Of a DNA stretch of 44,614 nucleotides, positions 7,916 to 34,693 are shown one piece after another. Every line of letters begins with the position of its first letter. Within the stretch, counting starts at the first letter, position 1. Source of the DNA: Bacillota bacterium (GTDB taxonomy: Bacteria > Bacillota > Clostridia > Acetivibrionales > DUMC01); contig JABUEW010000022.1 of NCBI GenBank assembly GCA_013314855.1, positions 1 through 44,614 of the forward strand, given 5' to 3'. Position numbers and translations under genes: made by a program. The notes under the pieces are model-generated. The model ran no database searches. It was not told the origin of the DNA and saw only the letters and a program-made list of their open reading frames with translations.

Positions 7916-8110
7916 CTACCCGTCCAATGTCCACTGTATCTCGCACACATGACCGACCCAGCCGGTGGCCACCGAGCCGCCCTGCAATAATAAGTCAGTG
8001 AAATACACCGTACCGGTGCAGTCGGTGACGCACAGCCGGATGGTAATGGATTTGACTCTGCCTCCACTTTTTGGGGAAATGCTATGTGCAGTCTGATTGA
8101 AATACGCCAT
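7916..8110 (-). CDS. Small prophage tail protein, paralogue of its downstream neighbour
   Basis: From the ATG at 8110 this is a 64-residue protein (MAYFNQTAHSISPKSGG); a TTG at 8128 would add six residues. It carries CVTDCTGTVYFTDLLLQ, nearly the same as ISDCTGTIYFTDLQFQ in the next gene, and ends with GWVGHVCEIQWTLDG where the neighbour has GYTVHTGKML. It looks like one beta-sandwich unit of a tail appendage. Function unknown. Confidence 0.55.
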   Translation of the reverse strand: MAYFNQTAHSISPKSGGRVKSITIRLCVTDCTGTVYFTDLLLQGGSVATGWVGHVCEIQWTLDG

Positions 8111-8124
8111 ACCCGCCACCACCC

Positions 8125-9735
8125 TCAAATCAGGTCTATAAACCTTGTTTCGGTTGTGCCATCTTCATACTCTATGACTACTTCAGCACCCACCTGGCCG
8201 TTTTCGCCTTTTTCGAGGTTTTCAGACGCAATCTGCGCCGAAAAGGTGTAGCTTTTGCGTGTAGCCGGACATACTGTCTGCGACAGGCTCTTTGTCATGC
8301 CTAAAACTCCCTCGGCTTTAAAGGAAGCCGTTCCCGAAACGCCGTTCTCGGTATCCACCTCAAAGCCGGAATTGACCCAATAAGCAAAGCCATCATCTGC
8401 CCGGGAATTGCGCAGATGGTTGAACGGCACCATATCCTTGATCTCCTGCCGGTCGAGCAGGTCGGTGGAGGACAGCGCTTCCGCCGCCTTGTCCCACTGC
8501 GCCGAAGAATCGCCTAATTCTCTAAGTTTTGTTGAAAGCTCGATCACCGTTTTCCACGGCTCCTGAAGGTTGTACTGCCGCCGCACAACGCGGGTCTTGA
8601 TGGACAGTCCCAACTCTTTGTCGTCCACCGTTACGATATCGCCCAGTTTCCACACTTCATGCTCATAGCCGGTCAGCGCCGACAAGTCCATGGCCGACAG
8701 CACATAGGAAACGCGGGGTTTGGCATATTCGGCAAGCCGCATCCGGGCATATTCCAGCATCTGATACGAATTGTTGAATGACGAACAGTCAAGTGTAGAT
8801 ACCCGCACCTCGCTCGAATAGCTGTAATCTTCCACATAATCCTTGCCTTCGTTGATGGAAGCAAAGGTCATGCCGTCCTTTCCGTAGGCATAAAGACGGG
8901 TGACAAGGCTTCGGATATCTACTACCCGCTGAATGCTTTTCAGGTTTTTGCGGTAAGAAAAAAGCGCTCCGCTGTCTGCGCCGCTGAATGCCAACAGATG
9001 CACCATCCGGTTGGCGCTGTCAAAAACAAGGTCGCCGCCATATATGTTCTGCACCATGCGAAGGATGGACAGCGCGTTTTTCTCGGTGCACTGCCATGTC
9101 CGCTTCGCAGTGACGGTGACGTTTCCCACCGACCAGCCGGTGTCCTGAAGCGCATATTGCATTGGAACATCTGCAGTATCGGCGTTGAAGTCCGCCGGTT
9201 CCTTTTCCACGCTGAAGGACAGGTCGTAAAATGCCACCTCGGCGTAGACCTGTGTTATGATGCGTCCGTCCTCGCTCTTGTTGTCTGTCAGAGTGCGGAT
9301 CCGGTAGATGTCGTTTACGATCTGCACCTGTTTTTCGTTTTCCAGCGCGCTTCTTTTCGGGTCATGGAACAGAAGCTTGAACTCCAGCGTATCCGCTCCG
9401 TTTACCTCGCCGGTGACGATAATATCGTAGGCGTTTTCAAGCACAGCCTCCCACGCGCCGTTCTCATCCAGCACAACAGGCCTTGCAAAGCCCAGCTTTT
9501 CATAGGGTGCTTTGGGAATATCGTGAAGCTGGATTTCCAAGAGCTTCGGCGTTTTCGATGTGCCGGCAGTTGCGAGTGTCACCTTGAAGCGGATATACTG
9601 CCGGTCGGGGGAATTCAGTTCTCCGCTTGTGCCGATGGTCTGCCATGCCGACCATTCTTTCAGATCGTCGCTCGTGCTGGTTTCTACCAGGGAAACCGAC
9701 ATCACACCTGCGGCATATTCGCTGGTCACCGCCAC
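8125..9735 (-). CDS. Siphophage tail-tip protein (Tal / Gp37-like), complete
   Basis: This 536-residue protein resembles phage minor structural proteins of the ReqiPepy6 Gp37/Tal type that follow Dit in siphophage tails. The core reads LENAYDIIVTGEVNGADTL, FKLLFHDPKR, then YRIRTLTDNKSEDG and TVTAKRTWQCTEKNALSILR, ending in the conserved YEHEVWKLGDIVTVDDKELG strand. The last 120 residues (FNHLRNSRADDGFAYWVNSG to IEYEDGTTETRFIDLI) look like a carbohydrate-binding beta-sandwich. It overlaps the LamG-like gene by 10 bp. The frame is intact although upstream morphogenesis genes are wrecked. Role: baseplate hub and host wall contact. Confidence 0.75.
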   Translation of the reverse strand: MAVTSEYAAGVMSVSLVETSTSDDLKEWSAWQTIGTSGELNSPDRQYIRFKVTLATAGTSKTPKLLEIQLHDIPKAPYEKLGFARPVVLDENGAWEAVLENAYDIIVTGEVNGADTLEFKLLFHDPKRSALENEKQVQIVNDIYRIRTLTDNKSEDGRIITQVYAEVAFYDLSFSVEKEPADFNADTADVPMQYALQDTGWSVGNVTVTAKRTWQCTEKNALSILRMVQNIYGGDLVFDSANRMVHLLAFSGADSGALFSYRKNLKSIQRVVDIRSLVTRLYAYGKDGMTFASINEGKDYVEDYSYSSEVRVSTLDCSSFNNSYQMLEYARMRLAEYAKPRVSYVLSAMDLSALTGYEHEVWKLGDIVTVDDKELGLSIKTRVVRRQYNLQEPWKTVIELSTKLRELGDSSAQWDKAAEALSSTDLLDRQEIKDMVPFNHLRNSRADDGFAYWVNSGFEVDTENGVSGTASFKAEGVLGMTKSLSQTVCPATRKSYTFSAQIASENLEKGENGQVGAEVVIEYEDGTTETRFIDLI

Positions 9736-10646
9736 ACGCCCATTTCCGGATAATGCACATGGTACTGCTTTCGTATATAGTACACGCTTTCGGGATACAC
9801 GCCGCCGGTCGCTTTAAGCACGACCTTACCCGGTTCGGTCAGAGCGTCCACATCCGCGCTTGTATCGCCGCCGTTGGCATAAAGAGACGCCTTAAAATAC
9901 TCAAGCAAATCGTCTGCCGTAAGCTGGGAACCGGTTTCCAAAAACCAGTCGTCGAAGCCACCGGCAAAATAATATGTATCCGCGTGCATGCCCATGACGA
10001 TGTTGGCGGTGCACTGCCGGTTCAGTTCGCCGGTGAAGGTGCGCAGAGGAGATACCCACGTCGCGCCGTCGCTGCGGTCACAGAGGATGTTCTGCACCTT
10101 TTTGCTGTTTACTTCGATAATGGAGGCGATAAAATACCAGCCACCGTTTTTCATGGTGATGGCGGCCGTTTCGCTCTGGTCATAAATAAGGGTGCCGGAG
10201 GAATTGTACAGCATCAGCCTGAGCCTTCCCTGATACAATGACACATAGAAAATCGGCTGGCCGGGTCCCTGGCGAGTGTTAAAGATAGGGCAATATGTCT
10301 GCCCGACCGAATAGGTGGTGGGATTGAGCCAGCCGCCTACGACAATCCTCTCGCCTAAATTGCTGAAAAAACTCCCGTCGTTCGTCGCTATAAGATGGGT
10401 CTTTTCCGAAGTTGGGTTAACGATGTTTTGCCGGAAGTATCGTCCGAATCTTCCGGCAATCAGATTCGCCGAAGTGCCTGACCAGCCGGAAACGGTAAAA
10501 TGCCTGCCATGTCCCGACGAATCCATAAGCCGCAGATTGCTGTCCGAAGCGCTTTCGTTGAAACGCCATAAAGCAGATGTCCGTGTGGTTACAGGAAACT
10601 CGCCGGTAAAATCCTCTTGTTTCGTTAGAATAGACTTGACCGCCAT
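9726..10646 (-). CDS. Phage tail protein with a LamG-like jellyroll domain
   Basis: The 306-residue protein starts at ATG 10646 after a GGAGGT site. Its centre is a concanavalin/LamG fold: TSALWRFNESASDSNLRLMD at the N-terminus, GWLNPTTYSVGQTYCPIFNT, FYVSLYQGRLRLMLYNSSG, GWYFIASIIEVNSKKVQNIL and FAGGFDDWFLETGSQLTADD. Such domains bind glycans. The position, after Dit and before the tail-tip protein, suggests a receptor-binding or wall-binding structural part. The C-terminal 45 residues (VDALTEPGKVVLKATGGVYP) may dock it to the tail. The frame is intact. Confidence 0.75.
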   Translation of the reverse strand: MAVKSILTKQEDFTGEFPVTTRTSALWRFNESASDSNLRLMDSSGHGRHFTVSGWSGTSANLIAGRFGRYFRQNIVNPTSEKTHLIATNDGSFFSNLGERIVVGGWLNPTTYSVGQTYCPIFNTRQGPGQPIFYVSLYQGRLRLMLYNSSGTLIYDQSETAAITMKNGGWYFIASIIEVNSKKVQNILCDRSDGATWVSPLRTFTGELNRQCTANIVMGMHADTYYFAGGFDDWFLETGSQLTADDLLEYFKASLYANGGDTSADVDALTEPGKVVLKATGGVYPESVYYIRKQYHVHYPEMGVWR

Positions 10647-10652
10647 TAAATC

Positions 10653-11085
10653 TCACCTCCATCTGCTTTTTGCCTGTATTTTAAGCTGTGTAAAAGTTGC
10701 GTCTGCCGCAGTAATCTCAATGTTGTTCACGCCCTTTCTGAGAATCGGGAAGTTCAGATCCTGCAGGCAGGGCAGTCCGTTACGCAAGGTGCCGCCTGTT
10801 TCATCAATAACCTTGGCAGTTACCATGCCGGTATCAATAACCAGCGTCTCACCCTCTGATAAAGCCCCGACAATCCGCAATTCCTCACCGTTTGTAATGA
10901 GCGAAATATAGCTTGAAGACGATGCTGAGATTATGCCTTTGAGAAAATACACAGGCTCGGAATCGGCGTTTCCTGTAAGCCTCTCTACCACATGCTTTCC
11001 TGTTTCGGAAAGAACGAATACTTCATCCTCCAGCGCATAGGCATGCGGGTCAGGGCAGATGAACCGCAGGTCGAACGCACCTGCC
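10653..11085 (-). pseudogene. Distal tail (Dit) protein, C-terminal part fused to tape measure remnant
   Basis: The frame reads FDLRFICPDPHAYALEDEVF, then VVERLTGNADSEPVYFLKG, IVGALSEGETLVIDTGMVTA and LNFPILRKGVNNIEITAAD. These are the hallmarks of the C-terminal half of siphophage Dit/phage tail family proteins. The N-terminal ring-forming half is gone: homology begins at about 11085 directly against tape measure codons that are in another frame. An internal start (GTG 10991) could express 112 residues, but a working hub is unlikely. It is followed by the intact LamG-like gene after 6 bp. Confidence 0.75.
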
Positions 11086-11794
11086 TCGCCATGCTGCCGG
11101 TCAGAGTTTCCAATGAAACGTCCACAAGCTCTGCGGCGTATTTATACGCCTGCAGGCTGTCGGTGGACATGCCGGTTACGGTTGAAGCGGTTATAATCTC
11201 ATCGGCATAGGCTGCCGAATTTACCGACATATCCACCAGCGCCTTACCTGCGCCGACCGCCGCCGTACCGATAGCGGCCATAGCCGCGCCCATGGCCACG
11301 CCGATCCCTTTCAAAACACCGCTTAATTTTTCAAAACGCCCTCCTGCGTCGTCCGCCTGATCCGCGGCTTTTTTCACCTCATTGCCGAATTCATCCGCCT
11401 GTTTTTCCGCTTCATTAAACTCTTTTCCCGCATTGTCCAGTGCTTTGTTGTTGGCCTCCATCTCGCGCTCCATTTTGTTCAGTTCAGCTTTGGCGTTGTT
11501 AAGCTGGATCTGCCAGGACTGAGTACGCCGGTCGGTTTCCCCGAAGGATGAGGCGGCATTGGCAAGCGCTTTCTCCAAGGTGGCAATCTTTTCTTTCTGC
11601 GTGTCGATCTCCTTATTCAGCACCCGGTTGCGCGCGGTGATAGCCTCTACAGACTGATCCTGCTTGTCAAACTGGGATGCGACAAGGTTCATTTCACTGC
11701 CCAGCACCTTGAAGCTCTGGTTGATTTCAGATAAAGCCTTCTTAAACCCCTTTTCGCCTTCAATGCCGATCTTCAGGCCAAAATCGTCTGCCAC
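11085..11794 (-). pseudogene. Tail tape measure protein, N-terminal remnant
   Basis: About 237 residues remain of a protein that is normally 700-1500 residues. It begins MADDFGLKIGIEGEKGFKKA (phage tape measure N-terminus), has a long heptad coiled coil (about residues 40-145, KEIDTQKEKIATLEKALANA onward), then an Ala/Gly-rich membrane-like helix (GIGVAMGAAMAAIGTAAVGA) and TASTVTGMSTDSLQAYKYAA, the usual start of the second domain. After SMARQV it is joined to Dit and runs out of frame to 10985. The start follows AGGAGG. Confidence 0.85.
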
Positions 11795-11849
11795 AAAACC
11801 GCCTCCTTCCTGTGAACTGTAAATTTAATCTTAAAAATACGAAAAGCTA

Positions 11850-11911
11850 TTGTATTTTATCGCGATTTGGCATATACTAATGGTAGGAAAAGTAGGGTTT
11901 ACCCTGCTTTT
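11850..11911 (+). promoter_or_regulatory. Promoter and operator of the AbrB/PIN pair
   Basis: TTGTAT (11850-11855) and TATACT (11873-11878) are 17 bp apart on the plus strand. Just downstream an 11-bp inverted repeat, AAAAGTAGGGT and ACCCTGCTTTT (11888-11911, one mismatch), lies where an AbrB-type antitoxin could bind to block transcription. Confidence 0.6.
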
Positions 11912-11935
11912 ATATCCAATAAAGGAGGGTTCACT

Positions 11936-12208
11936 ATGAGTGTTCCAATTGTTGATAATGCAAAGGTAATGTCCAAAGGCCAAATCACGCTTCCTAAAGA
12001 TATACGCTCCAAGCTTCGCCTTTCCACAGGAGACCGTGTCACCCTCATTTGCGAGGAAGATCGGGTCATTCTTATGAATTCCGCTGTCTATGCCATGAAA
12101 ATGCTGCAGAAGGAAATGGAGGGCGAAGCGGAAAAAGCCGGGATCCAGACCGATGACGACGTCATGGATCTGGTAAAGGACGTCCGCGCGGAGATTGAAG
12201 GACTATGA
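11936..12208 (+). CDS. AbrB/MazE-type antitoxin
   Basis: The start ATG at 11936 has an AAGGAGGG site 8 bp upstream. The 90-residue protein opens with the swapped-hairpin AbrB/SpoVT DNA-binding fold (KVMSKGQITLPKDIRSKLRL then STGDRVTLICEEDRVILMN, residues about 9-50). It ends in an acidic tail, the usual toxin-binding part. It overlaps the PIN gene by 4 bp, giving a VapBC-like type II module transcribed against the prophage genes. Both genes are intact and have their own promoter and terminator, so this is a self-contained cassette inserted between tail chaperone and tape measure remnants. Confidence 0.85.
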   Translation: MSVPIVDNAKVMSKGQITLPKDIRSKLRLSTGDRVTLICEEDRVILMNSAVYAMKMLQKEMEGEAEKAGIQTDDDVMDLVKDVRAEIEGL

Positions 12209-12609
12209 GAGTATTGATCGATACCAACATCCTCATCTCCGCATCCTTAAGCTGTGAAGGAACGCCTTATCAGGCTTATGTGAAAGCCGTTACACACCCC
12301 AACCATGGTATAGTCTGCGATCAAAACATTGACGAGCTTCGCCGGGTATACAACCGGAAATTCCCTCACAAAATCCAGGCGCTTGAACGCTTTTTGGCGC
12401 TTGCGCTTACCGTTCTTGAAGTTGTTCCGACTCCTGCCGTTGATATATCCGATGAAGCGCTTGTCAGGGACGTATCAGACAGGCCGATCCTCAGGGCCGC
12501 CATTACGGCCAAAGCCGACATACTTGTAACAGGTGACAAGGATTTTCTTGAATCCGGCATCACAAGCCTAAAGATCGTAACAGCGGCAGAGTTTCTGCAA
12601 ATGGAATAA
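12205..12609 (+). CDS. PIN-domain toxin (putative RNase)
   Basis: The 134-residue protein has the PIN nuclease layout: RVLIDTNILISASLS at the N-terminus supplies the first Asp, DQNIDELRRVY the conserved Glu, and the C-terminal part gives VRDVSDRPILRAAITAKADI and LVTGDKDFLE with the remaining acidic metal ligands. It belongs to the 'putative toxin-antitoxin toxin component, PIN family' group. Such proteins cleave RNA when their antitoxin is lost. It is translationally coupled to the AbrB-type antitoxin and followed after 12 bp by a strong terminator. Confidence 0.85.
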   Translation: MRVLIDTNILISASLSCEGTPYQAYVKAVTHPNHGIVCDQNIDELRRVYNRKFPHKIQALERFLALALTVLEVVPTPAVDISDEALVRDVSDRPILRAAITAKADILVTGDKDFLESGITSLKIVTAAEFLQME

Positions 12610-12621
12610 CAGCAGCTTTTT

Positions 12622-12650
12622 AAAGCAGGGACTGGATTCCCTGCTTTTTT
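12622..12650 (+). terminator. Rho-independent terminator of the AbrB/PIN cassette
   Basis: AAAGCAGGGA (12622-12631), a 6-base loop and TCCCTGCTTT followed by further Ts form a 10-bp perfect stem with a T tract just after the PIN stop codon. Confidence 0.85.
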
Positions 12651-12655
12651 GATGC

Positions 12656-12950
12656 TTATATTCCATAAGGAATCACATCATCTATGCTCAGCTCCCGTTT
12701 CGGTTTGGAAATACCTAAGAACTGCTTGTGGCACTCCCATAAATCCAGCAGGTTCCCGATGGGCATGAGCCATACTTCCTCCTCCGAGCGATGAAGCTGG
12801 ACAGTGCCGTAATATAAAAGCCGGGTAAACAATTCCTCATCGCTCACCCGGCCGGTGTGTTTTTTAAGTCATCCTCGCTTTGAATGTTTCTTTTGGTACC
12901 TTTGAACATCGCTTCCATTATTGCGTTCTTGTATGCCGCTTCCCAAAACT
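12656..12950 (-). pseudogene. Tail assembly chaperone (gpG/gpGT type) remnant with -1 frameshift site
   Basis: Zero-frame codons from about 12925 read NAIMEAMFKGTKRNIQSEDD, then LKNTPAG and stop at 12844. A second frame, -1 relative, reads GRVSDEELFTRLLYYGTVQL, EEEVWLMPIGNLLDLWECHK and ends at 12656. This two-frame layout, short G product plus G-T fusion, is the conserved arrangement of siphophage tail chaperones immediately before the tape measure. The slippery heptamer A AAA AAC lies in the overlap (12859-12865). The 5' part of G is lost to a deletion that joined it to the gene after the connector. Confidence 0.7.
12859..12865 (-). promoter_or_regulatory. Probable -1 ribosomal frameshift slippery site
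   Basis: On the minus strand the codons TTA AAA AAC contain the heptamer A AAA AAC in the X XXY YYZ register of the upstream frame. A -1 slip moves ribosomes into the long downstream frame 12 nt before the upstream stop region. This fits gpG/gpGT synthesis. Confidence 0.65.
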
Positions 12951-12956
12951 CATCTC

Positions 12957-13265
12957 TCAAACCCTCCAATCCTTGTCCAGCCGGAGCAGCAGATTTACCG
13001 TATTCCACACCTGCTGCCCTGCCTGCACGTTATCGGCAAAAAAACCGCCTGCGCTGCCGTCCCGGCTTTCATAAAAGTGGGACGACAGCATGATAACGGC
13101 CTGTTCGGTGGTGGGTGGCATGGGATTGTCGGCATAATACCCCTCCGACTTTTTCTGATAGCTCTCCGCATAGGCGACTGCGGCTTTGATGTATTCCTGC
13201 AAAAGCGCATCGTCTTCGCTGTGCTGCAGTATGAGGTTGGCTTTGACTTTCTCTATAAGCTCCAT
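12957..13265 (-). CDS. Phage head-tail connector (gp6-like)
   Basis: The 102-residue protein (MELIEKVKANLILQHSEDDA, LLQEYIKAAVAYAESYQKKS, then PTTEQAVIMLSSHFYESRDG) is a gp6-like head-tail connector that forms the ring under the portal in HK97-type phages. It is nearly full length for the family, ending LLLRLDKDWRV. Directly overlapping its stop, an ATG at 12953 starts MSFGKRHTRTQ, which looks like the first codons of the next gene (head-tail adaptor) before a stop. A deletion from there into the tail chaperone followed. Confidence 0.8.
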   Translation of the reverse strand: MELIEKVKANLILQHSEDDALLQEYIKAAVAYAESYQKKSEGYYADNPMPPTTEQAVIMLSSHFYESRDGSAGGFFADNVQAGQQVWNTVNLLLRLDKDWRV

Positions 13266-13286
13266 ACCGCCGTCCCCCGTTTCTCA

Positions 13287-14105
13287 TTAGGATGCCTTCT
13301 GCTGAAGAATTTTGACGGCCTCGGCCAGCACCAGCTTGCCGTCCACGCGCTGGGTAGCCATGAATCCTACCTGTCCGGTAGCGGCATACAGCTCGTTAAG
13401 CCGCTTGAAGACCCTGCCCTGGCGGTCTGCCACCCAATAGTAGCTGAAGTCACCAAACACAATGGTCTTAGCTCCGGCGGCAATAGCAGGCATGTAGGCC
13501 GAAGTCTTGACAGGGCGGTTGAGGATGATATCCGGCGTTCCGGCAGTAACGGAAGGCTGCCAGAGATACTGGCCGTTATTGTCCTTGAGCTTTCGTATGG
13601 CCTTGACTGTTGAGTCGTTCATGATAAATACCGCGTTCCTGCGGTAGGGAGACTTAAGGCTGTAAAACAAGTCCATTACCTCGTCGAGGGTAATGGCTGT
13701 CGCGCTTGCTGCAGTCACTCCTACCTCGCCGCCGCCCGTATCCGCTAAGATGCCGGTGGGTTTGCCGGAGCCGTCCCCGATAAAGAAAGCTTCCTCCTCT
13801 TTCGCACCGATACGGCGGGCAAACTCTTTGGCGATATACTGCTCCAGATTGAATACACTGTCGTTTAAGAGCTCCTCAGACACTTTGATCATTGTTGCCA
13901 ACTTGTAGGCTCCTATGGATACCTGCGCAAAGGAGTTGTCGCTTTCCGGGATCTGGCCTTCCTCATCCACCCAGGATGCAGTGCCCTTGCTTGCCACCAC
14001 CGGAATTTTCTTGTCGCCGCTGGAAGTTGTAATGACATTGGCAATCTGGCGGAAGATATTTTCCTCTTCCAGCGCTTCTACAAGAGTACGTTCAAACTCG
14101 TCGGG
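13287..14105 (-). pseudogene. Major capsid protein (HK97 family), C-terminal part
   Basis: The readable part begins at PDEFERTLVEALEEENIFRQ (14105) and runs through the capsid core: TSSGDKKIPVVASKGTASWV, EELLNDSVFNLEQYIAKEF, FFIGDGSGKPTGIL, AVFIMNDSTVKAIRKLKDNN, then FGDFSYYWVADRQG and KILQQKAS. This is the HK97-fold capsid with the P-domain and A-domain present. The delta domain, the head protease and the portal C-terminus that normally precede it are missing: the frame meets portal codons at 14105. An internal GTG at 14000 gives 237 residues. Confidence 0.85.
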
Positions 14106-14397
14106 ACAATGAAGTCATCTCAGGGTTTGGCTCGTCATGGAGCAGATAATATAACGGGTAGGTGAGCGCTTTTTCTTTGTCGCCGTCTTCCTTATAACGG
14201 TACACGTGAAGCGGAAGCCCTGCGATGGCCTCGGCCAGTATCCTTACACAGGCATACACTGCCGTTGTCTGCATGGCAGTCCGCTCGTTGACCGTCTTGC
14301 CGCTGCTGGTACCACCGAAGAAAAAGCTGTAGGCATTGCCGAACAGGCTGTTTTTCGGCTTGTCTCTTGCTTTGAACAGACGAGAGAATATTCTCAT
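14092..14397 (-). pseudogene. Portal protein, N-terminal fragment
   Basis: MRIFSRLFKARDKPKNSLFG, then KTVNERTAMQTTAVYACVRI, LAEAIAGLPLHVYRYKEDGD and YPLYYLLHDEPNPEMTS is a typical HK97-family portal N-terminus of about 95 residues out of about 400. After EMTS the sequence is capsid DNA read out of frame (LSRRV, stop). A deletion of roughly 1.5-2 kb removed the rest of portal, the protease and the capsid N-terminus. The start at 14397 or 14403 follows AAGGAGA. Confidence 0.85.
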
Positions 14398-14477
14398 AGG
14401 CATCACTCTCCTTAAAATGGGCATGAAAAAAAGCACCGCCATAGCGATGCTCTTCGTTATTTTTGGATTACATCAAT

Positions 14478-19558: not shown

Positions 19559-22047
19559 CTAAATGGAATAACATTCAACAAAATCGAGAAAATGAACTAG
19601 GAACATGCCAGCTTCCTCAATAAACAAAGCACCTTCATATTTTCTTATATCCTGAAAAGCCTGGCTGTTCTCGATTTTCCCTTCTTCCTTAATACTGCAA
19701 ATTACAAAGTTATGTTCATTCCCAGCTACCCATAAAAATATACTTTTTTCTTTAATCCAACTGGCTTGATTTTCATAAGAATTGGGCGGTGCAGAAAGCC
19801 GCCATTTTATGACCCCGTCAAGATCGACAAAAGCAATCTCCTCTTTGCTCACGAGTAAGATGCCATTTTCTCCTAGTACAAGGGAGGATATATTATGCTT
19901 TGTTTTAAGCTCCCATTCTTTCTGAAAGTCTGGTCCAAGGCAGCGAATGGTTTTATTACCTATTCTTAAAACCAATTTTTCGTTAGTTAGTTCTAAGGCT
20001 TCGTAAATTGCAGCCAGTAGTCTGATTTCCTCACTTATGGTTCCGTGCGAAATCTGGTACTGTTTTTTATCAGTTCGCTTGATTGTGTAATCTGCTAGAT
20101 TCAGATCATTAAGCCCGGCTCCAAACTCCCCTTTCGCCAGTGATTCCTTAATTTGTTTTCCTTGATGCCATACACCTTTTTCATCTTTGGAGTATTCGTA
20201 ATGCAAAGTACCGTTTTCTTGACTAAACATAAAAATGGCCCGATCATCAGTAATAAAGTCTATGGAAAAACCTATAGCCGGTATCTTCCTTTTAGCAATC
20301 TCTTTTCCTTTGGAATCTATCATTAATAAATAACCCGGGTCATAGGCCACATCACTACCATCCCCTTTACCTAAACCTATAAAGAGGGTTTCACCATCGG
20401 GAGCTAAGTATACACTAAAAGGGTAGGTTTTTACCTCTTTACTCCATTGCAAGTGCAGGTCAAAATCAAAGCACAGTATCTCGACTATATCCTGTAGTCT
20501 ACCTGTTTTGGATTGAGAATCAATCCGTTTTAGTGTAATAAAATGCTTGTATTGTTTATCTATTAGCCTTATCCCATAACCCTTTGCATCTTCGTATTTC
20601 CACCTTAGTTTAAACGGCTTGTCCGCTTTAACTTCAGGTACTACTGAATTCAAATCATCCGTACCTTGGGCGGAATTTGTAACATGCTGAACCCTTTTGA
20701 TTTGCCAGGATTGCCCCGCCGGTGCCAACCACAGGTAACCCATGGCTGAATTCTTACCATCATAAAAAATGTTGTGTCCTTCTATTTGGAATAGCTGCAT
20801 TCCAGGGTGGCCTTCCATTCCTGCCACCAGCTCACCGGTGATTTTGTCCAACTCATATAACCTGTTGTCTTCACAAACAATCAGTTGTTTTTCTTGGCCA
20901 GGTATAGGCAAAACAGTACTGGCTTGTTTGGGAAGTTTGGCAGCATATGTAAATTCTCCCCTGTGATTGAGCCAGAAAGTCTGCCCGGATTCTAAAGATA
21001 TTATAAGGTTTTCATCCAACCACTTAAGATAACGCCCACCCTCTTTAAAGGTAACGCTCCAGGCTAAAAATCCTTTCTTATCCCAGCCTGTTAACCGTCC
21101 TTCATTTTCTAGAATAAAAACCATATCGGTACTGGGGTCATGGGTAAAAGCTGTAAAGGGAGAGTTAAAAGTAAGCCTGGTAAAGCCGCTGATAAAATTC
21201 TGGGCCATCTTATTAGCGATCATTTCAATTGCTTCTTTTTCTGTTTTAGGTTTAGACGAGTATTTGGCCTGTCGTTTTCTCTCTTTCTCTTGTAGTTCAG
21301 TCTCTTTCAGTTCAGAAATAGCCACTCGCATAGCTAGAGAACCATCAGGATTTATACGGTATAGTCGATCCATACTGGAGACAAAAATATCGCTTGAATC
21401 ACTGGAAACTTTAAGATGATAAGGCGTAACCTCTATAGTGCCGAACATGGTATCCATCTTTTCAGTAAAGCGAATACCCCACTGATGTTCCCCAGAAAAA
21501 GAAAAACAATACAGCTCCCCAGGCCCGTAATAGGTCTCCCGGGTACCGACAAGCCAGTAGTCTTTAGCCAGTGCCTGGCTGAATGGCTGCCACTGGAACT
21601 CATAGATCATCCCTTCCAACGAACGAAAGTTAATAAAACCGATGCGTTCTTTATCCCCTAAAATTGCCCCATTGGCATTCACCTCAAGCACGTTCATTCC
21701 TTCAAAAGGGGTGTCTTTTAAGAGAATCCTTTTTAGACTTGATTTGCTTACTATTTCTATACGGCTACTGTGTTCAGCCACCAGCGAGTTAGTCCCATAA
21801 TAGTGAAGGCGTACTTTTTTTCCTGTCTGCCGAATAAAGCCTTCCAACTTTTCGTTCGTTTTGCTACTGGAAAAGAAACTGTCCCAGGTGTCTTCAATTT
21901 CACTCGCTAGCTGTACTTTTAAAACTTGTTTAAATAACGGCTTTGTAATGTTTTGATAGTAAGGTTTGCCCCCGAAACAGCTGGCAAATTAGTTTCCTGG
22001 AGCTTAGCCCCTAAAAATAGCTTTTTTATTCCGTCAAATAAACCCAT
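19559..22047 (-). pseudogene. Large probable beta-propeller protein of the defence operon, frame broken in a G run
   Basis: A start at 22047 with a strong GGAGGG site opens MGLFDGIKKLFLGAKLQETN but stops after about 40 codons. The G run at 21969-21973 has five Gs; with six, the frame joins KPYYQNITKPLFKQVLKVQL and IEDTWDSFFSSSKTNEKLEG and continues for 760 residues to 19559, about 829 in all. The main part consists of repeated short beta-blade units (GELYCFSFSGEHQWGIRFTE, DPSTDMVFILENEGRLTGWD, RLYELDKITGELVAGMEG, GNKTIRCLGPDFQKEWEL), typical of WD40/PQQ-like propellers. There is no signal peptide. It is the last gene of the operon, 54 bp after the TatD gene, and perhaps the sensor or scaffold. 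Frame loss could be real, phase-variable or a sequencing error. Confidence 0.7.
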
Positions 22048-22101: not shown

Positions 22102-22869
22102 TTATATAGGATTCATATGTGTAAAACCTATAGCCTTCAAATAATTTTCATACACACGAGCCTTTGCTTCCTTTACATCACAATTCCAGGCATTAGCTAG
22201 AAAATGAATCACATTAATTACATCAGCAGGAACGGCTGGTACTTTTCCGACACGAACAAAAGGACCGTCAGTCTCAGTAAGCACCAAATCAGGGTTCATA
22301 TGCTTTATTAGGCTTTGACCTTTAGCCGATCTTACCATGGAAATATTGATTGATATATACATACCATAATCCATTGCTTTTTTGAGGTCTTTTACTGATC
22401 CGCTAAACCAGTGAAGAATAACTCGTCCCGGATAGTCAGGCCCAATCATGGCAATAACATCACTGGCTGCCTGGCGTGAATGAACCGTTAGGATTTTATT
22501 TCCTTCTGTTGCGCATTTCTTTAAAATCTCTTCGAAGACCTTTCGCTGGAGCTTAATTTCCTGTTCGTTGCCAGTAGTGTAATCTAGGCCTACTTCCCCA
22601 ATAAAACGGGTTTCCTTCAATAGATTCTCCATGAGTGCAAGTTCCTGGCTCCGCGTTCCTACAAGTTGGGGATGTAAACCCAGAGCAGCGTGGATATATT
22701 TATAACAACCCACAAGGTTCTGAGTGGCTTTAAAAACAGAGGGCGTATTTGTAACAGCTATTACCTCAACCCCTGAAGCCTCAATTTCAGTTGCGATCTT
22801 TACTGGATTCTCAAACAGGTCCAAATGAAAATGACAGTCTACCAGCCGACTCGTATTCAGACTATTCAT
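22102..22869 (-). CDS. qatD: TatD-family nuclease (QatD-like)
   Basis: From the ATG at 22869, which overlaps the QatC-like stop as ATGA, this is a 255-residue TatD-type metal-dependent hydrolase. The metal ligands are visible: DCHFHLDLF (H13, H15), FIGEVGLDYT, LTVHSRQAASD, VILHWFSGS and LTETDGPFV. TatD enzymes are 3'-5' exonucleases or AP-type nucleases on a TIM barrel. Next to a QueC-like and a KAP ATPase gene it corresponds to QatD, the effector nuclease of the Qat anti-phage system. A longer reading from 22917 is possible, but the overlap start has an AAAGG site. Confidence 0.85.
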   Translation of the reverse strand: MNSLNTSRLVDCHFHLDLFENPVKIATEIEASGVEVIAVTNTPSVFKATQNLVGCYKYIHAALGLHPQLVGTRSQELALMENLLKETRFIGEVGLDYTTGNEQEIKLQRKVFEEILKKCATEGNKILTVHSRQAASDVIAMIGPDYPGRVILHWFSGSVKDLKKAMDYGMYISINISMVRSAKGQSLIKHMNPDLVLTETDGPFVRVGKVPAVPADVINVIHFLANAWNCDVKEAKARVYENYLKAIGFTHMNPI

Positions 22870-24191
22870 CCTTTGTTTCTCCCTAAAAATTTTGCTATTT
22901 CTTTCATACCGCGGCAATATACCTCGATATACTGGGATAATTCATCAGGGGGAATAGGCCCAGAACTGAGCACGTCAAAAACAGCCTTCTCCTCTCCCCG
23001 TTGACTAAACCTTTCTAGAGCAATTTCCATTGCCCGTAGATCTTTCCCTTTATCCGATCCTGAGAGTGGCGGAAGATTAAAAATATCATGGTCATATTCT
23101 GCATCATGCATGCCACTTTCAAAGACTGCTGCCTGGCGGATGATGCAGGGAAAACAATAACCGCAGTGACCGCCAGGCGGCAGGTATTCAAGGCGGCGAT
23201 TATCCGGATGTGCGCAAGACATGATGAGAGGAAGGGTTCTTCTGAGCAGATCCTGATTCTTACTTTCCCTAATCATCTCACCTTTTGTCTTAAAACGGTA
23301 ATTGAGATTAAGAGAATGAGTCAAATTTAGAGCCTGTAATACTTCCCTATATAAAGCAACGTAGTATGGATGGGTTGTACGGGTGCTGCAGCTGCCAAGC
23401 CGGGCTGGTGTCAGCGGAACATTAAGTGAGATAAGCCCGTTTTCAGCCACATATAGCGGAATACCTGTACCAAGAGCATCTGCCACTGCAATACCTAGTG
23501 CAAAAAACAGAAAAGATCTCGTGCGTGTAGTATCTTCGTTGTCTGGGTCCGAATCTATTCTGGGAACTTGCGGGGGAAGAACATAGAACTGGAGTGGCAC
23601 TAACTGTTCACCATATTCGTCTTTTAAACACTTAAATAGGTCATTCTGGAATTTTGGCGTGCTGCCCCCTCCATGGTGTGACACAAGTGCTACCTTTTTA
23701 CCTTCCGATAGCAGGTCAATAGCACCAATAAGGGAGTCGAGACCCCCGGAAAATAAAGATACTGCCTCAGGCAGATTTTCAGGCAGTTTTTTATAACCTT
23801 CCCGTTCTGCTGAAAACTCCCGGAAGTAAAATTGCCAGCGGTCCCCACTAAGAAAGGTCAATAATTCGGTAAGTAACGGCCCTGCCTGCTGCCAAACTGC
23901 TAACGAAGTGACAGGGAGATAGATATTAATATCCCTTGTCCACCCATCTGATGCATATCTGCGGGAGATTAATAGATCAGCAGAATAGACAGCAATTGCA
24001 GCACGCAAAAGATCGCAGGCAGTATTTCCTGGGACAGAACCAAGAACATCTGCGATTTTATTAAGAACACTTTCCCGAGCCAAAAACGGATCTTCCGGCC
24101 TGTCAAAGGAGACGCCTAATACTGGCCCACCTTGGCTTATAGGAGCAAAAATATCACTATTCCCAATTATGATAACTACATCCCAACTCAT
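22866..24191 (-). CDS. qatC: QueC-like PP-loop ATPase (QatC-like)
   Basis: The 441-residue protein carries the PP-loop SGGLDS at 148-153 (LFSGGLDSLIGAIDLLSEGK), AENGLISLNVPL (about 250), and a Cys cluster GGHCGYCFPC near 335-345 of the kind that binds zinc in QueC (7-cyano-7-deazaguanine synthase). The N-terminal 140 residues are an extension absent from housekeeping QueC. No other queuosine or deazaguanine genes are nearby. This architecture matches QatC of Qat defence systems. It overlaps the KAP ATPase gene by 4 bp and the TatD gene by 4 bp, so all three are translationally coupled. Confidence 0.85.
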   Translation of the reverse strand: MSWDVVIIIGNSDIFAPISQGGPVLGVSFDRPEDPFLARESVLNKIADVLGSVPGNTACDLLRAAIAVYSADLLISRRYASDGWTRDINIYLPVTSLAVWQQAGPLLTELLTFLSGDRWQFYFREFSAEREGYKKLPENLPEAVSLFSGGLDSLIGAIDLLSEGKKVALVSHHGGGSTPKFQNDLFKCLKDEYGEQLVPLQFYVLPPQVPRIDSDPDNEDTTRTRSFLFFALGIAVADALGTGIPLYVAENGLISLNVPLTPARLGSCSTRTTHPYYVALYREVLQALNLTHSLNLNYRFKTKGEMIRESKNQDLLRRTLPLIMSCAHPDNRRLEYLPPGGHCGYCFPCIIRQAAVFESGMHDAEYDHDIFNLPPLSGSDKGKDLRAMEIALERFSQRGEEKAVFDVLSSGPIPPDELSQYIEVYCRGMKEIAKFLGRNKG

Positions 24192-25645
24192 TGTTCCACC
24201 TCCAAAAAGCCATACGCCTCCTGAAAAACTGTATCAATGATATTACGCCCAGCAGGACCATTCCAGTCAATCGACACCGGGTCTTGTTCTCCGAGTTCAA
24301 GCCTTACACGTTCCCTGACATATACCCTGACATCACGTTCTAAACCTACTGCTTGTAATGGTGAAATTGCCTTATTTTTTAGTTGTTGTGGCCGCCCCCC
24401 CTGGGCAGCCTGCCAGCGAGCAAGTTGTTTAAAAGATTCCGGCCTGAATCGCTCAAGCAACATCAGTTTTACCAGGACGCGCTGCTCAAGGGTAATTCCA
24501 CGCAGTCTAGCCATTTCTAAACGGAGAACAAATGTGTTTAGGAATCGCTTGCACTGACGTGGATTCCCATTGAGTCCCCTCGCTAAAAGCGGCGCAATCC
24601 GAGCAGAGATGGCCAGGCTCTCCTGTAATTCTTTAGATAGTTCCCCAATCACTCCCTGGGCTTCCTCAATGCCAAAGCTTAGTTCAAGGTCCGTGCCTAT
24701 ACACTCTAAAGCTTTGGTGCGTGTTTTCGTTATTAAGTCACTGTCTAAACCAGAGGCTTCGGTAAAAAGTAGTGAGATATAGGTTTCCATTTCTGCCCTG
24801 CCAAGAGGGGGTACCCTTACCGGATATTGAATTAGCTTTTCCAGGTAGTCCTTGCTTACCTCTGATTTGTTGCCCTGAAACTCTGGGAAACGCTGTTTTA
24901 CAGCGTATTCTACCAGCCTCTCATCCGCTCCTATTATAAAGGCTGTCCGGGGTACAAAGAGAAAAAGCTTAATGGCTTCAAGAGTTTCTATAATTGTGTC
25001 AGGCAGGCACCTATCAAGATCATCAATGATAACTACTAGTTTTTCTATGTTACTCTCACTGAGTAAGAACTCAAAATCCTTCCGGAATTCACGTATGCCC
25101 CGCCTTAGATTGTGTGCCGTCTCGCTCTCAAACAGCTTGTTTAACTCTTCCTCTTTTACATCATTAATTTTCTCTGAGGCCTTTTCCAGAGCCTGTTTGG
25201 CATCAAGGCCTGCAATCAGCCCCACACCTGCTGGACCTCCGGTAAATAATGCTGTCCCATATTTAACACTGTGGCGCATCAGCGTACCTGCCACCCGGAA
25301 CCAATTTACCCGGCGCAACAAATTCACCGCAAGAGTTTTTACCTTTTTACTTGGTGTTTGATGACTTAAAATCTCATCGATAATTGTACCCATAAGCGCG
25401 GACTTTGCGTCATCATATCCCTCAAAGAGCCAGCCATTAAAATCTAGCACTAATGTTCTTTCGTTTTTTTCAAGCTTTTGTCGAACCATTGAAATCAGGC
25501 TTGACTTGCCACTACCCCAGTCACCAAAAACGCCAATGGTAGCCGGAAGCAAATGATCTGCGGAAGCCAGATTTGCAACAACATCAGCAATGTAGGAAAA
25601 GCCAAGAAGGTCGATATTTGTTTCATGATCTGGCCATAAATTCAT
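24188..25645 (-). CDS. qatA: KAP-family P-loop ATPase (QatA-like)
   Basis: This is a 485-residue KAP NTPase: Walker A GDWGSGKSS at 41-49, FNGWLFEGYDDAKSAL (the KAP 'W' motif, 69-84), and Walker B VVIIDDLDRCLPDTIIETLE at 204-223, with TAFIIGADERLVEYAV sensor sequence and a C-terminal LLARGLNGNPRQCKRFLNTF helix typical of the family. A weakly hydrophobic segment (LFTGGPAGVGLIAGL, 133-147) lies where KAP proteins often insert membrane helices. It matches QatA. The start follows a GGGGGGATAG stretch 33 bp after the helicase stop. Canonical Qat has a qatB between A and C; here A and C overlap by 4 bp, so qatB is absent. Confidence 0.85.
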   Translation of the reverse strand: MNLWPDHETNIDLLGFSYIADVVANLASADHLLPATIGVFGDWGSGKSSLISMVRQKLEKNERTLVLDFNGWLFEGYDDAKSALMGTIIDEILSHQTPSKKVKTLAVNLLRRVNWFRVAGTLMRHSVKYGTALFTGGPAGVGLIAGLDAKQALEKASEKINDVKEEELNKLFESETAHNLRRGIREFRKDFEFLLSESNIEKLVVIIDDLDRCLPDTIIETLEAIKLFLFVPRTAFIIGADERLVEYAVKQRFPEFQGNKSEVSKDYLEKLIQYPVRVPPLGRAEMETYISLLFTEASGLDSDLITKTRTKALECIGTDLELSFGIEEAQGVIGELSKELQESLAISARIAPLLARGLNGNPRQCKRFLNTFVLRLEMARLRGITLEQRVLVKLMLLERFRPESFKQLARWQAAQGGRPQQLKNKAISPLQAVGLERDVRVYVRERVRLELGEQDPVSIDWNGPAGRNIIDTVFQEAYGFLEVEQ

Positions 25646-29789: not shown

Positions 29790-31440
29790 TTATTTTGCCC
29801 CCAGCTCCTGCTCCATCTCCAAACCCGACTTGAATTTAATGATAATCTTGTCCTTCGACACGACCTTGATGCTATATACAAGCTGCCTGACAAGCTGGTT
29901 ATCAAACTCCGATAATTTGCAGTCTGCGGCGTTCAGAAACTTCTTCATATCCTCGATTCTTCGTTGGAAGCTGTCTTGCCTGGCTTCCTGTTCAGTATAT
30001 TGCGTTTTCTTCTTCTGGAGTTCTTTCAACTCGGAGGAGATTTTAGCATAGTGCTCGTCAAAGTCCGTATTATCTGCTCCACGTCTTGCATTTCCCTCTA
30101 CGAAGCCTATCATCTCATTTTTTAATTCCGCGATCCGTTCCTCTATTCTTGCTATGTCCATCTGCTTGGCCCGGTTGCCCATCACCAGCTGAATATTTGA
30201 CTGGAGCGTGTCCATAAAATCTCCCTTATCATGTATAAGTGAATTAAAAGCATCCATAATGGCTCTATGCAAAACATCTTCATCAATGGTTGGAGACTTT
30301 TGACAGTATTTCTTCCCATGCTCCAGCCTGTTAAAGCACCGCCAGACAATCCTTTTCTCGCTGTATGCTGTCCAGGATGCCCGTCTGTAGGGCTTGCCGC
30401 ACTCCCCGCATATCAATAATTCGGTAAGAGCATATTTTGAGCTGTATTTTCCGCTGTCGGTTTTGACTCTTTTATCGGCAGACTTTCTGATGTTAGCCCG
30501 GCGTGCTTTTTCTTCCTGTATCCGATGAAACAAGTCTTTGGAAATGATGGCTTGATGGCTGTCCTCCACATAATACTGCGGAACAATTCCATTGTTTTTA
30601 ACTCTTTTCTTAGTGAGATAATCCACAGTGTAGCTTTTTTGCAGCAGGGCATCTCCCATGTACTTCTCATTGGAGAGCATCCTGTTGATGGTGGTAGTAG
30701 ACCATTCGTTTTTTCCGGTAACGGTTTTTATGCCGTTTTCTTCTAGGTACTTTTTGATTTGGGTAATGCTTTGACCCTCTAGGTACAGTCTGAAAATCAA
30801 CTTCACAATTTCTGCTTCTTCGGGTACAATCATCAGCTCTCCGGCCTCATTCTTCGTGTAGCCCAAAAACCGGTTGTGGTTGACCATAACCTGTCCTTTC
30901 TCGAACCGGCGGACGACACCCCACCTTGTGTTTGTGCTTAAGGAACGGCTTTCTTCCTGGGCGGCTTTCTTCCTGGGCGAGGCTTCCGAGGATGGTGATG
31001 AGAAATTCTCCGGTGCTGTCCAGGGTGTTGACGTTTTCTTTCTCGAAGAACACGCCGATGTTTTTTTCTTTCAGTTTCCGTATGTATTGAATGCAGTCAA
31101 GGGTGTTTCTTGCAAAACGGCTGATGGATTTTGTCAGCACCAGATCGATCTTGCCTGCCATGCAGTCTTCAATCAATTTATTGAACCCTGTTCTGTTTTT
31201 TGTGCTGGTGCCGGATATCCCCTCATCGGCATAGATGCCTGCAAACTTCCAGCCTGGGTTTTTCATAATCTCCGCCGTGTAATAATCCACCTGTGCCTGG
31301 TAGCTGGACTGCTGTTCCTCCAGTTCCGTGCTGACCCGGCAGTAGGCAGCCACTCTCAATTTTTTTATCTTTGCTTTTTCCTTAAAATCATAAATCGGAT
31401 TTGCAGGGATTACCGATACCGTTCTTTGTCCCATCGCCAT
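29790..31440 (-). pseudogene. Large serine recombinase disrupted by a 16-bp tandem duplication
   Basis: The start at 31440 has AAAGGAGG. The N-terminal resolvase domain reads [20 protein letters not shown] (catalytic Ser), [40 protein letters not shown] and [12 protein letters not shown]. Then the 16 bp at 30963-30978 repeat 30947-30962 exactly and shift the frame, giving about 33 wrong residues. Removing one copy restores [14 protein letters not shown], then [20 protein letters not shown], the recombinase domain, a zinc ribbon (LICGECGKPYRR, WRCFNRLEHGKKYC), a coiled coil and the C-terminus, 544 residues. It is the third of three tandem recombinases. Confidence 0.88.
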
Positions 31441-32368
31441 GGGCCTTTCCTCCTTTTCTCCGTAGTGTATATGAAGTGCTCAGCACCACTCCGTTGATCA
31501 GTTCAAACCGGAGTTGCCCGGTGATTTCCACCGTAATGCTTTTGATGGTTGCTTTGAATAAAGCCTCATCAAATGCTTTAATGGGCTTGCAGCTCTCAAT
31601 CGCCGTTTTCAATTTCCTGGTTTTGTATTCAAAATCATCCACCCGGGAGATTCGATATTGTTCTGCAGCTCTTTTGAATAGCATCTGTGCCATTTCCGAT
31701 GGTTTCAAGCTGTTTTGATCAAATCCGTTGGATATTTGCAATTTTATTTTTCTTAATTCAACACTCTCTGTCACCGCACGAGCTGCCGGACGTTTTTCTA
31801 TAATTTTAGGGTACTCCATCACCCGGTTGATAATCTGCATAAAAGCCATTTCAAGCTGCCTGTCGTCAACTACGCCGCTTTTGCAGCAGACCCTGTTGTC
31901 AACGATATACCGTTTGCATTTCCAGTTGCATTTTTTGTTTTTGTCATGGTGTTCAGTATACCTTTTGAAAACACTCCCGCATTCCCCGCATATCAACCTG
32001 CCGCTGAAGGGATAAGTGCTGGAAATGCTGTTGGCATAATAATTGACATTTCTGCCAAGCTGGGAGTTCTTTTCTTCCCTGAGCCTGTTGGCAACATTGA
32101 ATACTTCCTCCGGGATAATGGCAGGATAGAAGTCGCTTCCGGTGTATTTACAGTTGCTTAAAATTTTTCCGATGGAGCCGTGATTCCGGGAGGGCTTTCC
32201 GTTGGCATTGGGAACCTTCATTTCAGTAAGAGCCTTTGCCATCCGGTTTAAAGATATGCCCGATATAAAATCATTGAACATTTTCCTGACCAGGTCCGCT
32301 TTTTCCGGTTCGATGACTACGGCTCCATCTATGATTTTATAGCCGAAGGGCATATGTCTTTGCGCCAT
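31388..32368 (-). CDS. Serine-recombinase-like protein without the catalytic domain
   Basis: The 326-residue protein starts at ATG 32368, immediately after the stop of the upstream recombinase. It begins [20 protein letters not shown], which is already the recombinase (DNA-binding) domain, followed by [20 protein letters not shown], the zinc ribbon ([35 protein letters not shown]) and the C-terminal region ending [18 protein letters not shown]. No resolvase domain exists upstream in any frame, so it was made without one. It probably binds DNA as an accessory or directionality partner of the two full-length recombinases. Its end overlaps the next gene by 53 bp. Confidence 0.8.
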
Positions 32369-33970
32369 TTAGTTCACTTCCTCTCCGATGATTTCTGGAA
32401 GCTCCAGTCCGTTGATCAGGCGGAAGGCGATTTCAAGCTTAGATTTTACGATGATCTTTTCTACCATCAGCGAAAATATGTTTTCATCAAAGCTCTCCAT
32501 TAGCTCATCCTGCTTTTTGAGAAAAGCGATCAGTTCCTTCGTCTTGGCGGCCTCGTCATTAAATCCGTTATATTCGAACAGCTTGCTTCGCTGCTTTTTG
32601 GCTTCGTAGAGTTGCTTGGTGATCAGATTGCTTTGCTCTATAAAAAGAACAGAGTCAAGATATCCTTTCGACCTCAGTCTACTTAATACATGACTCTGTT
32701 CCGTAAGTTCCGTTATTTTTTTATTGATTTCCCTGACCTGGGATTCATACTCCCTGCCGCAGTGAAGCTTTTTCAAATCCTCGGCCAGGGGAGTCAATAT
32801 TTTGTCATAATTGCTTTTCAGCTTGTTATATAGATTGATGAATGCAGCTTTGATGTGATTGTCCTTGATGGCCGTCATGCCGCATTCCGCCCAGTTCCTG
32901 ATATGCTTGGTACAGCACCACTGCTCTGTCTCGTAAGGTTTGCCCTTGTATATGATTTGCCTTTTGAAAGTGCTTCCGCATCCACCGCATTGGATTTTGC
33001 TGCTGAACGGGTACTGTTGGTTATATTTTCGGGGGTCGGTATCCACCATGGCTTTTTCTGTTTTTCGCTGCTCCATGATTTCCCTGACTCGTTCAGCCTG
33101 CTCTTTTGCAATAATGGGTTCGTGGTCGTTGGCGATGTAGCAGCACTGTTTTTGTCCCCGGTTCCGCTTTCGCCGGAAGGGCAATGTGTCGGTGGTGAAG
33201 GTCTTCTGAAGGAGTATGTCGCCGTAGTATTTTTCATTGGTCAGGATTTCCTTCACCACATTTTCTCCCCAGGCTTCCGCCTCTTTTCTTGTTGGAACTC
33301 CTTCTTCCGTTAGCTCCTTTGCGATGATGTATGTTCCTTTCCCGTTCAGGTAATCGGTATAAATCCTTCGGACAACAACGGCTTCTTCTTCATTCGTGAT
33401 GATTCTTCCGTCCTTGTCCTTCTTATAACCGTAGGGAATGGAGGAAGGCTTCCATTCGCCTTTCATGAACCTTTTTTGTATCGCTCACCGGTTGTTTTTT
33501 GATATGGATATGGATTCCTCCTGGGCAATGGAGCTTAAAACCGTCATCAGCAGCTCGCTTTCAGCGGACAGGGTGTTGATGTTTTCTTTTTCAAAATAAA
33601 CGGCAATCCCAAGCATTTTCAGCTTTCTCACCGTCTCAATGCAGTCGGCGGTGTTTCTTGCAAACCTGGATATGGACTTGGTAATGACCATGTCCACCTT
33701 TTTGGCTTCACAGTCGGCAATGAGCCTTAGAAACTCATCCCGCTTGTCTTTGGCGGTGCCGCTGATGCCTTCGTCTGCATAAATTCCCGCAAAAGTCCAA
33801 GCATTGTTGCTTTCTATCAGCCGGGTGTAGTACTCCACCTGTGCTGAAAAGGATTGCAGCTGTCCGGTGTGATCCGAGCTGACCCGGCAGTATGCGCACA
33901 CCCGCAGTTTTGGAGCTTCAACTTCCGCTTCCATGCAATTGATTGGCTTGATAACTCTTACTTTTGGCAT
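32369..33970 (-). pseudogene. Large serine recombinase with an in-frame TGA
   Basis: The start ATG at 33970 follows AAAGGAGG. The resolvase domain reads LRVCAYCRVSSDHTGQLQSF (catalytic Ser), [20 protein letters not shown] and [20 protein letters not shown], ending SISISKNNR, then TGA at 33485-33487, then in the same frame AIQKRFMKGEWKPSSIPYGY. Relatives have Trp here, so TGG has become TGA. The second half holds the recombinase domain, a zinc ribbon (KIQCGGCGSTFKRQIIYKGK, WCCTKHIRNWAECG), a coiled coil and the C-terminus. With Trp it would be 533 residues. First of the three tandem genes. Confidence 0.88.
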
Positions 33971-34053
33971 ACGCTTCCTCCTTTCGCTTTTCAGTACATG
34001 ATGCTTTATCAGCAACACACAGTACCACACAACCCCGGCCATATCAAGTGTTT

Positions 34054-34215
34054 TTACACATATACCTCCGCCAGGGATGGAGCGAATGAATTCCGATTTA
34101 ATCTGTCAATTTCTTTCAATTCATAAAGAGTAATAAGACCTCTTTCAAGCAGGCTATTCAGCAGCAAAAGCGCCACCTTATACTTCACCTCATTGGCTAT
34201 TTGCATCTGTAACAC
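34054..34215 (-). CDS. Small SHOCT-like protein
   Basis: A 53-residue protein from GTG 34215, with GGAGGGG 5 bp upstream, reads MLQMQIANEVKYKVALLLLN, SLLERGLITLYELKEIDRLN, RNSFAPSLAEVYV. The LLERGLITLYELKEID core resembles SHOCT domains, short two-helix modules often found at the ends of other proteins or alone beside recombinases. It lies 12 bp after the resolvase-like gene and 83 bp before the recombinases, in one transcription unit. Function unknown. Confidence 0.65.
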   Translation of the reverse strand: MLQMQIANEVKYKVALLLLNSLLERGLITLYELKEIDRLNRNSFAPSLAEVYV

Positions 34216-34227
34216 GTTTTCCCCTCC

Positions 34228-34617: not shown

Positions 34618-34666
34618 GATTTTCATCCCTCCTGTTATTTGAATTGATGTTTGATGCCAAAAGGAT

Positions 34667-34693
34667 GCGGCAGGGCTTTGACGGCTCTGCCGC
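34667..34693. repeat. Stem-loop upstream of the resolvase-like gene
   Basis: GCGGCAGGGC and GCTCTGCCGC form a 10-bp stem with one mismatch and a 7-base loop. The T tract on the minus strand is weak, so it may be an attenuator, a recombination site or a weak terminator. Confidence 0.4.

What the first reader, a model, noticed from the sequence alone, without database searches (positions are those of the whole stretch)
21965..22047. G-run frameshift near the start of the propeller gene: decay, phase switch or error
Seen: GGGGG at 21969-21973; adding one G joins MGLFDGIKKLFLGAKLQETN to the remaining 760 codons with sensible sequence on both sides. The rest of the 2.4-kb frame is clean, unlike true old pseudogenes nearby. 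A recent or reversible change in a homopolymer is likely, which could switch the last operon gene on and off.
Basis: seen in the sequence. Interest (0 to 1): 0.55.

Follow-up and report, generated by a model that had tools for sequence, protein, structure and literature searches.

The report
Recently broken propeller gene in decaying operon
A gene at the end of a bacterial anti-virus operon carries a one-base frame break near its start; relatives and its neighbours suggest an ordinary, recent loss of the gene rather than a genetic on/off switch.

Summary
The frame break is really in the sequence. An ATG with a strong ribosome-binding site (22047, minus strand) opens a frame that ends after 42 codons; the conserved 2.4-kb frame continues in another register. 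The two other copies found of this rare gene read straight through the site. Placement in the G5 run is not established: summed over both relatives, a gap at 21962-21965 scores 308 matches, one in the run 307. Five Gs is below the length used to call phase variation (7), the relatives have three, and the window holds 21 G/C runs of 5 or more. I reject the switch. The window lineage shows purifying selection (dN/dS 0.11), so the break is recent, or an error (0 of 135 conserved places in the same assembly show a frame switch; the detector found 80 of 135 planted ones). The operon decays elsewhere too: qatA ends in what looks like the last 50 codons of qatB, so the QatB parts essential for Qat defence are gone. 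All three copies found of the propeller gene are broken, each differently. Ordinary loss of a gene, with a mildly interesting pattern of repeated loss.

The parts
19559..22047 (-). propeller-like gene, about 830 codons, with one frame break; function unknown
   Evidence: ATG 22047 with AGGAGGGAGGGG upstream; two relatives collinear from the ATG; weak PQQ/BamB-type Pfam matches below cut-off; matches to designed beta-propellers
21959..21973 (-). stretch in which the one-base length difference most likely lies (exact base not resolvable); includes the G5 run 21969-21973
   Evidence: gap-placement scores against L002 and L156
21919..22047 (-). 42-codon frame from the native ATG with its stop, which lies past the lesion
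   Evidence: frame 0 translation
19559..21847 (-). downstream frame from the first in-frame ATG/GTG/TTG (a TTG), 762 aa; no ribosome-binding site evident by eye
22102..22917 (-). qatD (TatD-family nuclease)
   Evidence: NF041926 278.5 bits, cut-off 230; PDLC02215
22866..24191 (-). qatC (QueC-like)
   Evidence: NF041925 438.9 bits, cut-off 280; PDLC02214
24188..25645 (-). probable qatA-qatB deletion fusion: QatA residues 1-423, then about the last 50 residues of QatB; its stop overlaps the qatC start by 4 bases
   Evidence: NF041923 covers 2-431/628, below cut-off; tail matches QatB profiles, but no PADLOC model at E 0.001; open frames of four strong relatives 608-643 codons
25679..27496 (-). 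gajB (Gabija helicase)
   Evidence: PDLC00138 566 bits
27417..29444 (-). gajA (Gabija nuclease)
   Evidence: PDLC00071 588.7 bits

Best explanation
The gene is a recently inactivated accessory gene (a young pseudogene). It arrived by horizontal transfer, was under purifying selection for nearly all of its history on this lineage, and then suffered a one-base frame break near codon 28. Ribosomes that start at the native ATG end after 42 codons, and there is no good restart, so no full protein is expected. The loss happened in an operon that is decaying: a deletion appears to have fused qatA to the end of qatB and removed the QatB parts that Qat defence needs. Shown: the frame break, the collinear relatives, the selection signature, the short QatA with a QatB-like tail. 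Inferred: that the break is a real mutation, that the tail came by deletion, and that no product is made.
For: Two relatives read through the site in one frame and align to each other without a gap over the first 202 bases (177 of 202 identical). Window-branch dN/dS 0.108 over 255 codons, 58 of 94 unique changes at third positions; pairwise with L002 0.124 over 789 codons at dS about 1.0, and 0.19 over codons 1-28. A strong SD lies before ATG 22047, none is evident before TTG 21847. The QatA tail scores 14.9 bits on a QatB profile; 0 of 2000 shuffles reach it (best 4.8) nor do six QatA tails (best 3.0, one unscored); NF041924 positions 129-179/179, E 0.0018, 18.3 bits against a cut-off of 100. 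[quoted passage not shown]). 0 of 135 conserved places in 1.18 Mb of the 4.43-Mb genome show a frame switch; 80 of 135 planted ones were found.
Against: No reads can be seen, so an error at this one base is not excluded; the zero of 135, corrected for sensitivity, allows up to about one per 25 kb at 95% (my arithmetic). A clean, constrained rest of the gene is also what an error in an intact gene would look like. The QatB-like tail is short, and PADLOC gives no match for it at E 0.001.
Confidence: 0.62

Rival explanations
1. Sequencing or assembly error: the gene is intact in the organism.
For: Draft assembly of 252 contigs; the remaining frame is clean and the window lineage shows strong purifying selection.
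Against: 0 of 135 conserved places in the same assembly are frame-switched, though the detector's sensitivity was only 80 of 135. A second lesion of another kind seems to sit in the same operon.
Confidence: 0.27
2. Phase variation: slippage in the G run switches the gene on and off.
For: A G run lies at or within a few bases of the break; a placement in the run scores only one match less than the best. Phase-variable defence genes exist (recalled).
Against: Five Gs, against a cut-off of 7 and shown switching at 8 or more in Campylobacter (PMC6321876, passages); three Gs in both relatives; 21 such runs in the window.
Confidence: 0.04
3. Recoding or restart: -1 ribosomal frameshifting, transcript slippage, or initiation at TTG 21847 still gives a product.
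For: The downstream frame follows directly and is open; TTG is an allowed start.
Against: Neither relative needs a shift there; no SD is evident before TTG 21847 and the codons before it are conserved.
Confidence: 0.06

Closest known systems
Pseudogenes in defence systems (PADLOC web server paper PMC9252829, passages seen)
   Same: A frameshift that inactivates a member of a defence locus; that paper shows a frameshift in jetC and says that such pseudogenes may be sequencing errors or remnants of inactivated systems.
   Different: Here the broken gene is an uncharacterised propeller-like gene that matched no PADLOC, NCBIfam or PHROGs model at the thresholds used.
qatABCD anti-phage system (PMC13279940)
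   Same: qatC and qatD are above the NCBIfam cut-offs and the N-terminal two thirds of QatA is conserved; gene order kept.
   Different: qatA ends in a QatB-like tail, so the QatB N-terminus and most of QatB are missing; a propeller-like gene follows qatD.
Phase-variable poly-G genes (Campylobacter, PhasomeIt PMC6321876)
   Same: A G run at or near a frame break.
   Different: The run is shorter than the cut-off, is not kept in relatives, and the lesion is not tied to it.

Membership tests
Phase-variable homopolymer gene | Tract of 7 or more G/C in the coding frame (cut-off for Campylobacter) | tested here: not met
   5 Gs at 21969-21973; cut-off from PMC6321876
Phase-variable homopolymer gene | Tract kept in relatives, or length variants among them | tested here: not met
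   Three Gs in both L002 and L156; only two relatives
Phase-variable homopolymer gene | Mixed tract lengths among reads or isolates | not testable with these tools
   No reads held
Pseudogene | Frame broken relative to homologues that are collinear at the site | tested here: met
   2 of 2 other copies collinear there
Pseudogene | No functional product | not testable with these tools
   Needs expression data; only the SD context was looked at
qatABCD | QatC and QatD | tested here: met
   NF041925 and NF041926 above cut-off
qatABCD | Full-length QatA | tested here: not met
   462.4 bits, cut-off 600, profile 2-431/628; six plasmid QatA are 609-652 aa
qatABCD | QatB with its N-terminal glycine motif | tested here: not met
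   Only a QatB-like tail of about 50 residues at the end of qatA; no match to NF041924 in the genome at E 0.001, a search that also missed this tail
Gabija | Adjacent GajA and GajB | tested here: met
Beta-propeller | Repeated blade motif / propeller fold | tested here: inconclusive
   PQQ_2 E 0.0094 and DUF5711 E 0.0069, both below cut-off; profile match to designed propeller Cake10, E 1.5e-9; AlphaFold mean pLDDT 40.4, residues about 231-340 best with block means 54-80

The most novel reading that the evidence does not exclude
The propeller-like gene is an uncharacterised, horizontally moving accessory gene, often next to defence operons, that is useful while it spreads but costly once resident, so that it is repeatedly and independently inactivated: every copy found is broken at a different place, after long purifying selection.
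Probability: 0.22. Interest if true: 0.5.

Novelty: new member of a known kind. Interest (0 to 1): 0.22.

Why it matters
It replaces a tempting reading (an on/off switch) by an ordinary one, and indicates that the neighbouring Qat system is probably dead, which an annotation by gene presence could miss. If the pattern of three broken copies out of three holds with more copies, it would be a small, testable case of a gene that is selected in transit and lost on arrival.

Tried and rejected
Looked for more copies. The genome contigs pattern scan gave 1 relative from 7 pattern matches; it reaches close relatives only. Viral contigs: 2 pattern matches, 0 relatives. Plasmids and phages: no match. 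Whole-genome searches, with overlapping sets: 1 of 60, 1 of 391 and 1 of 398, the one being the own genome; 2 of 198 and 2 of 46 around G813. The metagenome collection could not be scanned.

Against L002 alone the missing base seemed to lie outside the G run; with L156 the difference fell to one match in the sum, so I dropped that claim.

Considered the propeller as a stand-in for QatB in a new Qat variant. I think it unlikely, because a QatB-like tail is still present at the end of qatA and no Qat gene was seen beside the other two copies in the ORFs searched. It is not excluded.

The structure prediction was poor (mean pLDDT 40.4), so no fold search was run. A viral scan with QatC found no relative. 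The frame-switch control first had no sensitivity figure; it was then measured as 80 of 135. Median best identity of proteins was dropped as evidence of transfer, because it is low for the same-family genome G002 too.

Full report
OBSERVATION. The gene lies on the minus strand. From ATG 22047, preceded by AGGAGGGAGGGGAATCAG, the frame reads MGLFDGIKKLFLGAKLQETNLPAVSGAN... and stops after 42 codons; another frame is open for 809 codons between stops, down to 19559. The two frames differ by one base. It is not unusual: 21 runs of five or more G or C in the window, about 50 expected from a first-order Markov model.

RELATIVES. The gene is rare in what I could search. A scan of genome contigs found one relative, L002, in the MAG Clostridiaceae bacterium BRH_c20a, from Opalinus Clay (PMC5067608, passages seen). 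Both copies read in one frame through the place that is broken in the window. Each is broken elsewhere: L002 lacks 28 bases after codon 424, and L156 stops resembling the family after about codon 285, far from a contig end; the rest was not found in 14 kb of that contig, and the genome search reported only residues 1-224 of the query in G843. All 3 of 3 copies found are thus damaged, at three places. All are in draft genomes or MAGs.

WHERE THE BASE IS MISSING. Against L002 the best single gap is between 21963 and 21964 (150 matches; 147-148 inside the run). Against L156 ten positions tie at 159, some in or at the edge of the run. Summed, 308 at 21962-21965 and 307 in the run. The run can be neither blamed nor cleared. 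The relatives have three Gs at the homologous place.

AGE OF THE LESION. Between window and L002 dN/dS is 0.124 over 789 codons at dS about 1.0; it is 0.19 in the 28 codons before the lesion and 0.13 in the 38 codons between lesion and first TTG, so the native start is most likely the ATG. With three copies over 255 codons the window branch has dN/dS 0.108, and 17, 19 and 58 unique changes at codon positions 1, 2 and 3. The L156 branch is high (0.685) but rests on dS 0.042. The L002 branch gives 0.16, but its unique changes are 22, 11 and 21 by codon position, which does not look like clean constraint. For the window, constraint along nearly the whole branch means that the lesion is young, or is an error.

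ERROR RATE. With 560 reference proteins from sampled stretches of G002, G813 and G005 against 1,180,600 bases of the own genome (of 4,427,354), 135 conserved places (E below 1e-20, identity 35% or more; 124,866 bases; 122 with at least half of the reference covered) were examined and none showed a frame switch; two further checks for short matches flagged 2 places that cover 18% and 23% of their references, not followed up. When one base was removed at random from each of the 135, 80 were detected. The assembly is not error-ridden, but one error in this gene remains possible.

OPERON. Upstream lie gajA and gajB (Gabija), then qatA, qatC and qatD. QatA is too short: NF041923 matches 2-431 of 628 and stays below its cut-off (462.4 of 600 bits), while the open frames of the four other strong relatives found in 391 genomes are 608-643 codons long against 495 here, and six plasmid QatA are 609-652 aa. 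Its last residues resemble the end of QatB: 8.8 bits on a profile of nine QatB; tail alone 14.9 bits, none of 2000 shuffles above 4.8, six true QatA tails at most 3.0 with one unscored; NF041924 positions 129-179 of 179, E 0.0018, well below the cut-off. Against this, PADLOC gives no match for the tail at E 0.001, and one of the nine proteins in my profile (G032) is itself not matched by NF041924 and two others are below its cut-off. The stop overlaps the qatC start by four bases, as the qatB stop does in L011 and L012. A deletion of roughly 1.2 kb (my estimate from profile positions), removing the end of qatA and most of qatB, would explain this. NF041924 finds no QatB in the genome at E 0.001; the control E. 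coli genome rang, below the cut-off. In P. aeruginosa Qat, the QatB-QatC complex is the minimal defence unit and the QatB N-terminal glycine motif is essential (PMC13279940: abstract, passages and section on QatBC seen). The Qat operon here is therefore probably inactive.

MOBILITY. A DNA comparison of L002 and two further 20-kb stretches of its contig with the window matches the gene and 13 bases upstream only (7787-10261 to 22060-19559), nothing else at E 1e-5. In L002 the gene follows pglZ and brxL of a BREX system and a restriction-endonuclease-like gene, and precedes a phosphoesterase and an AAA gene. Around L156, among 11 neighbouring ORFs searched, Pfam shows serpin, RadC and ABC-transporter domains (10 ORFs), and PADLOC (10 ORFs) shows candidate-defence and metallopeptidase-regulator models about 8 kb away and generic ATPase matches for the ABC protein, no established system. 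So 2 of 3 copies sit directly beside defence operons. The own genome does not appear among the 46 genomes held for the class of BRH_c20a, so 78% DNA identity of a gene missing from the rest of the searched genomes points to horizontal transfer. Protein identities between the sampled genomes were too low throughout to serve as a yardstick (medians 32% for G813, 40% for the same-family G002).

WHAT THE PROTEIN IS. Probably a beta-propeller: weak Pfam matches to PQQ/BamB-type repeats and a profile match to designed propellers (Cake10, E 1.5e-9). The model is too poor to say more. Function is unknown; an accessory sensor or scaffold role is a guess.

VERDICT. The switch is rejected on tract length, lack of conservation, uncertain placement and the decay of the operon. 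A recent inactivating mutation is most likely (0.62), a sequence error second (0.27). The unusual part is that all three copies found of a long-constrained gene are broken; with n of 3 that is a lead only. Paper searches on Qat, defence pseudogenes, BREX phase variation, propellers in defence islands and poly-G tracts listed none that by title is about this gene; only listed rows were seen (12 of 79, whose top paper PMC9519451 mentions beta-propellers and was not read).

Noticed in passing
24395-24401: A run of seven Gs (minus strand) inside the short qatA, just before the point where QatA similarity ends; it meets the Campylobacter cut-off for a phase-variable tract, but the frame is open through it.
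   Followed up: partly
29790-34809: Serine recombinases on the minus strand split into separate Resolvase-domain and Recombinase/zinc-ribbon ORFs, in two adjacent pairs; a similar 345-aa C-terminal-type ORF exists in G005, so the split may be natural.
   Followed up: no
8125-14442: Prophage remnants: tail-spike-like protein, HK97-type capsid protein lacking its first part, portal fragment.
   Followed up: no
L157:3994-4936: A bacterial serpin gene split into two ORFs near the truncated propeller copy.
   Followed up: no
22021-22047: The N-terminus MGLFDGIKK is identical in all three copies; it looks like a short amphipathic leader (recalled impression, not tested).
   Followed up: no
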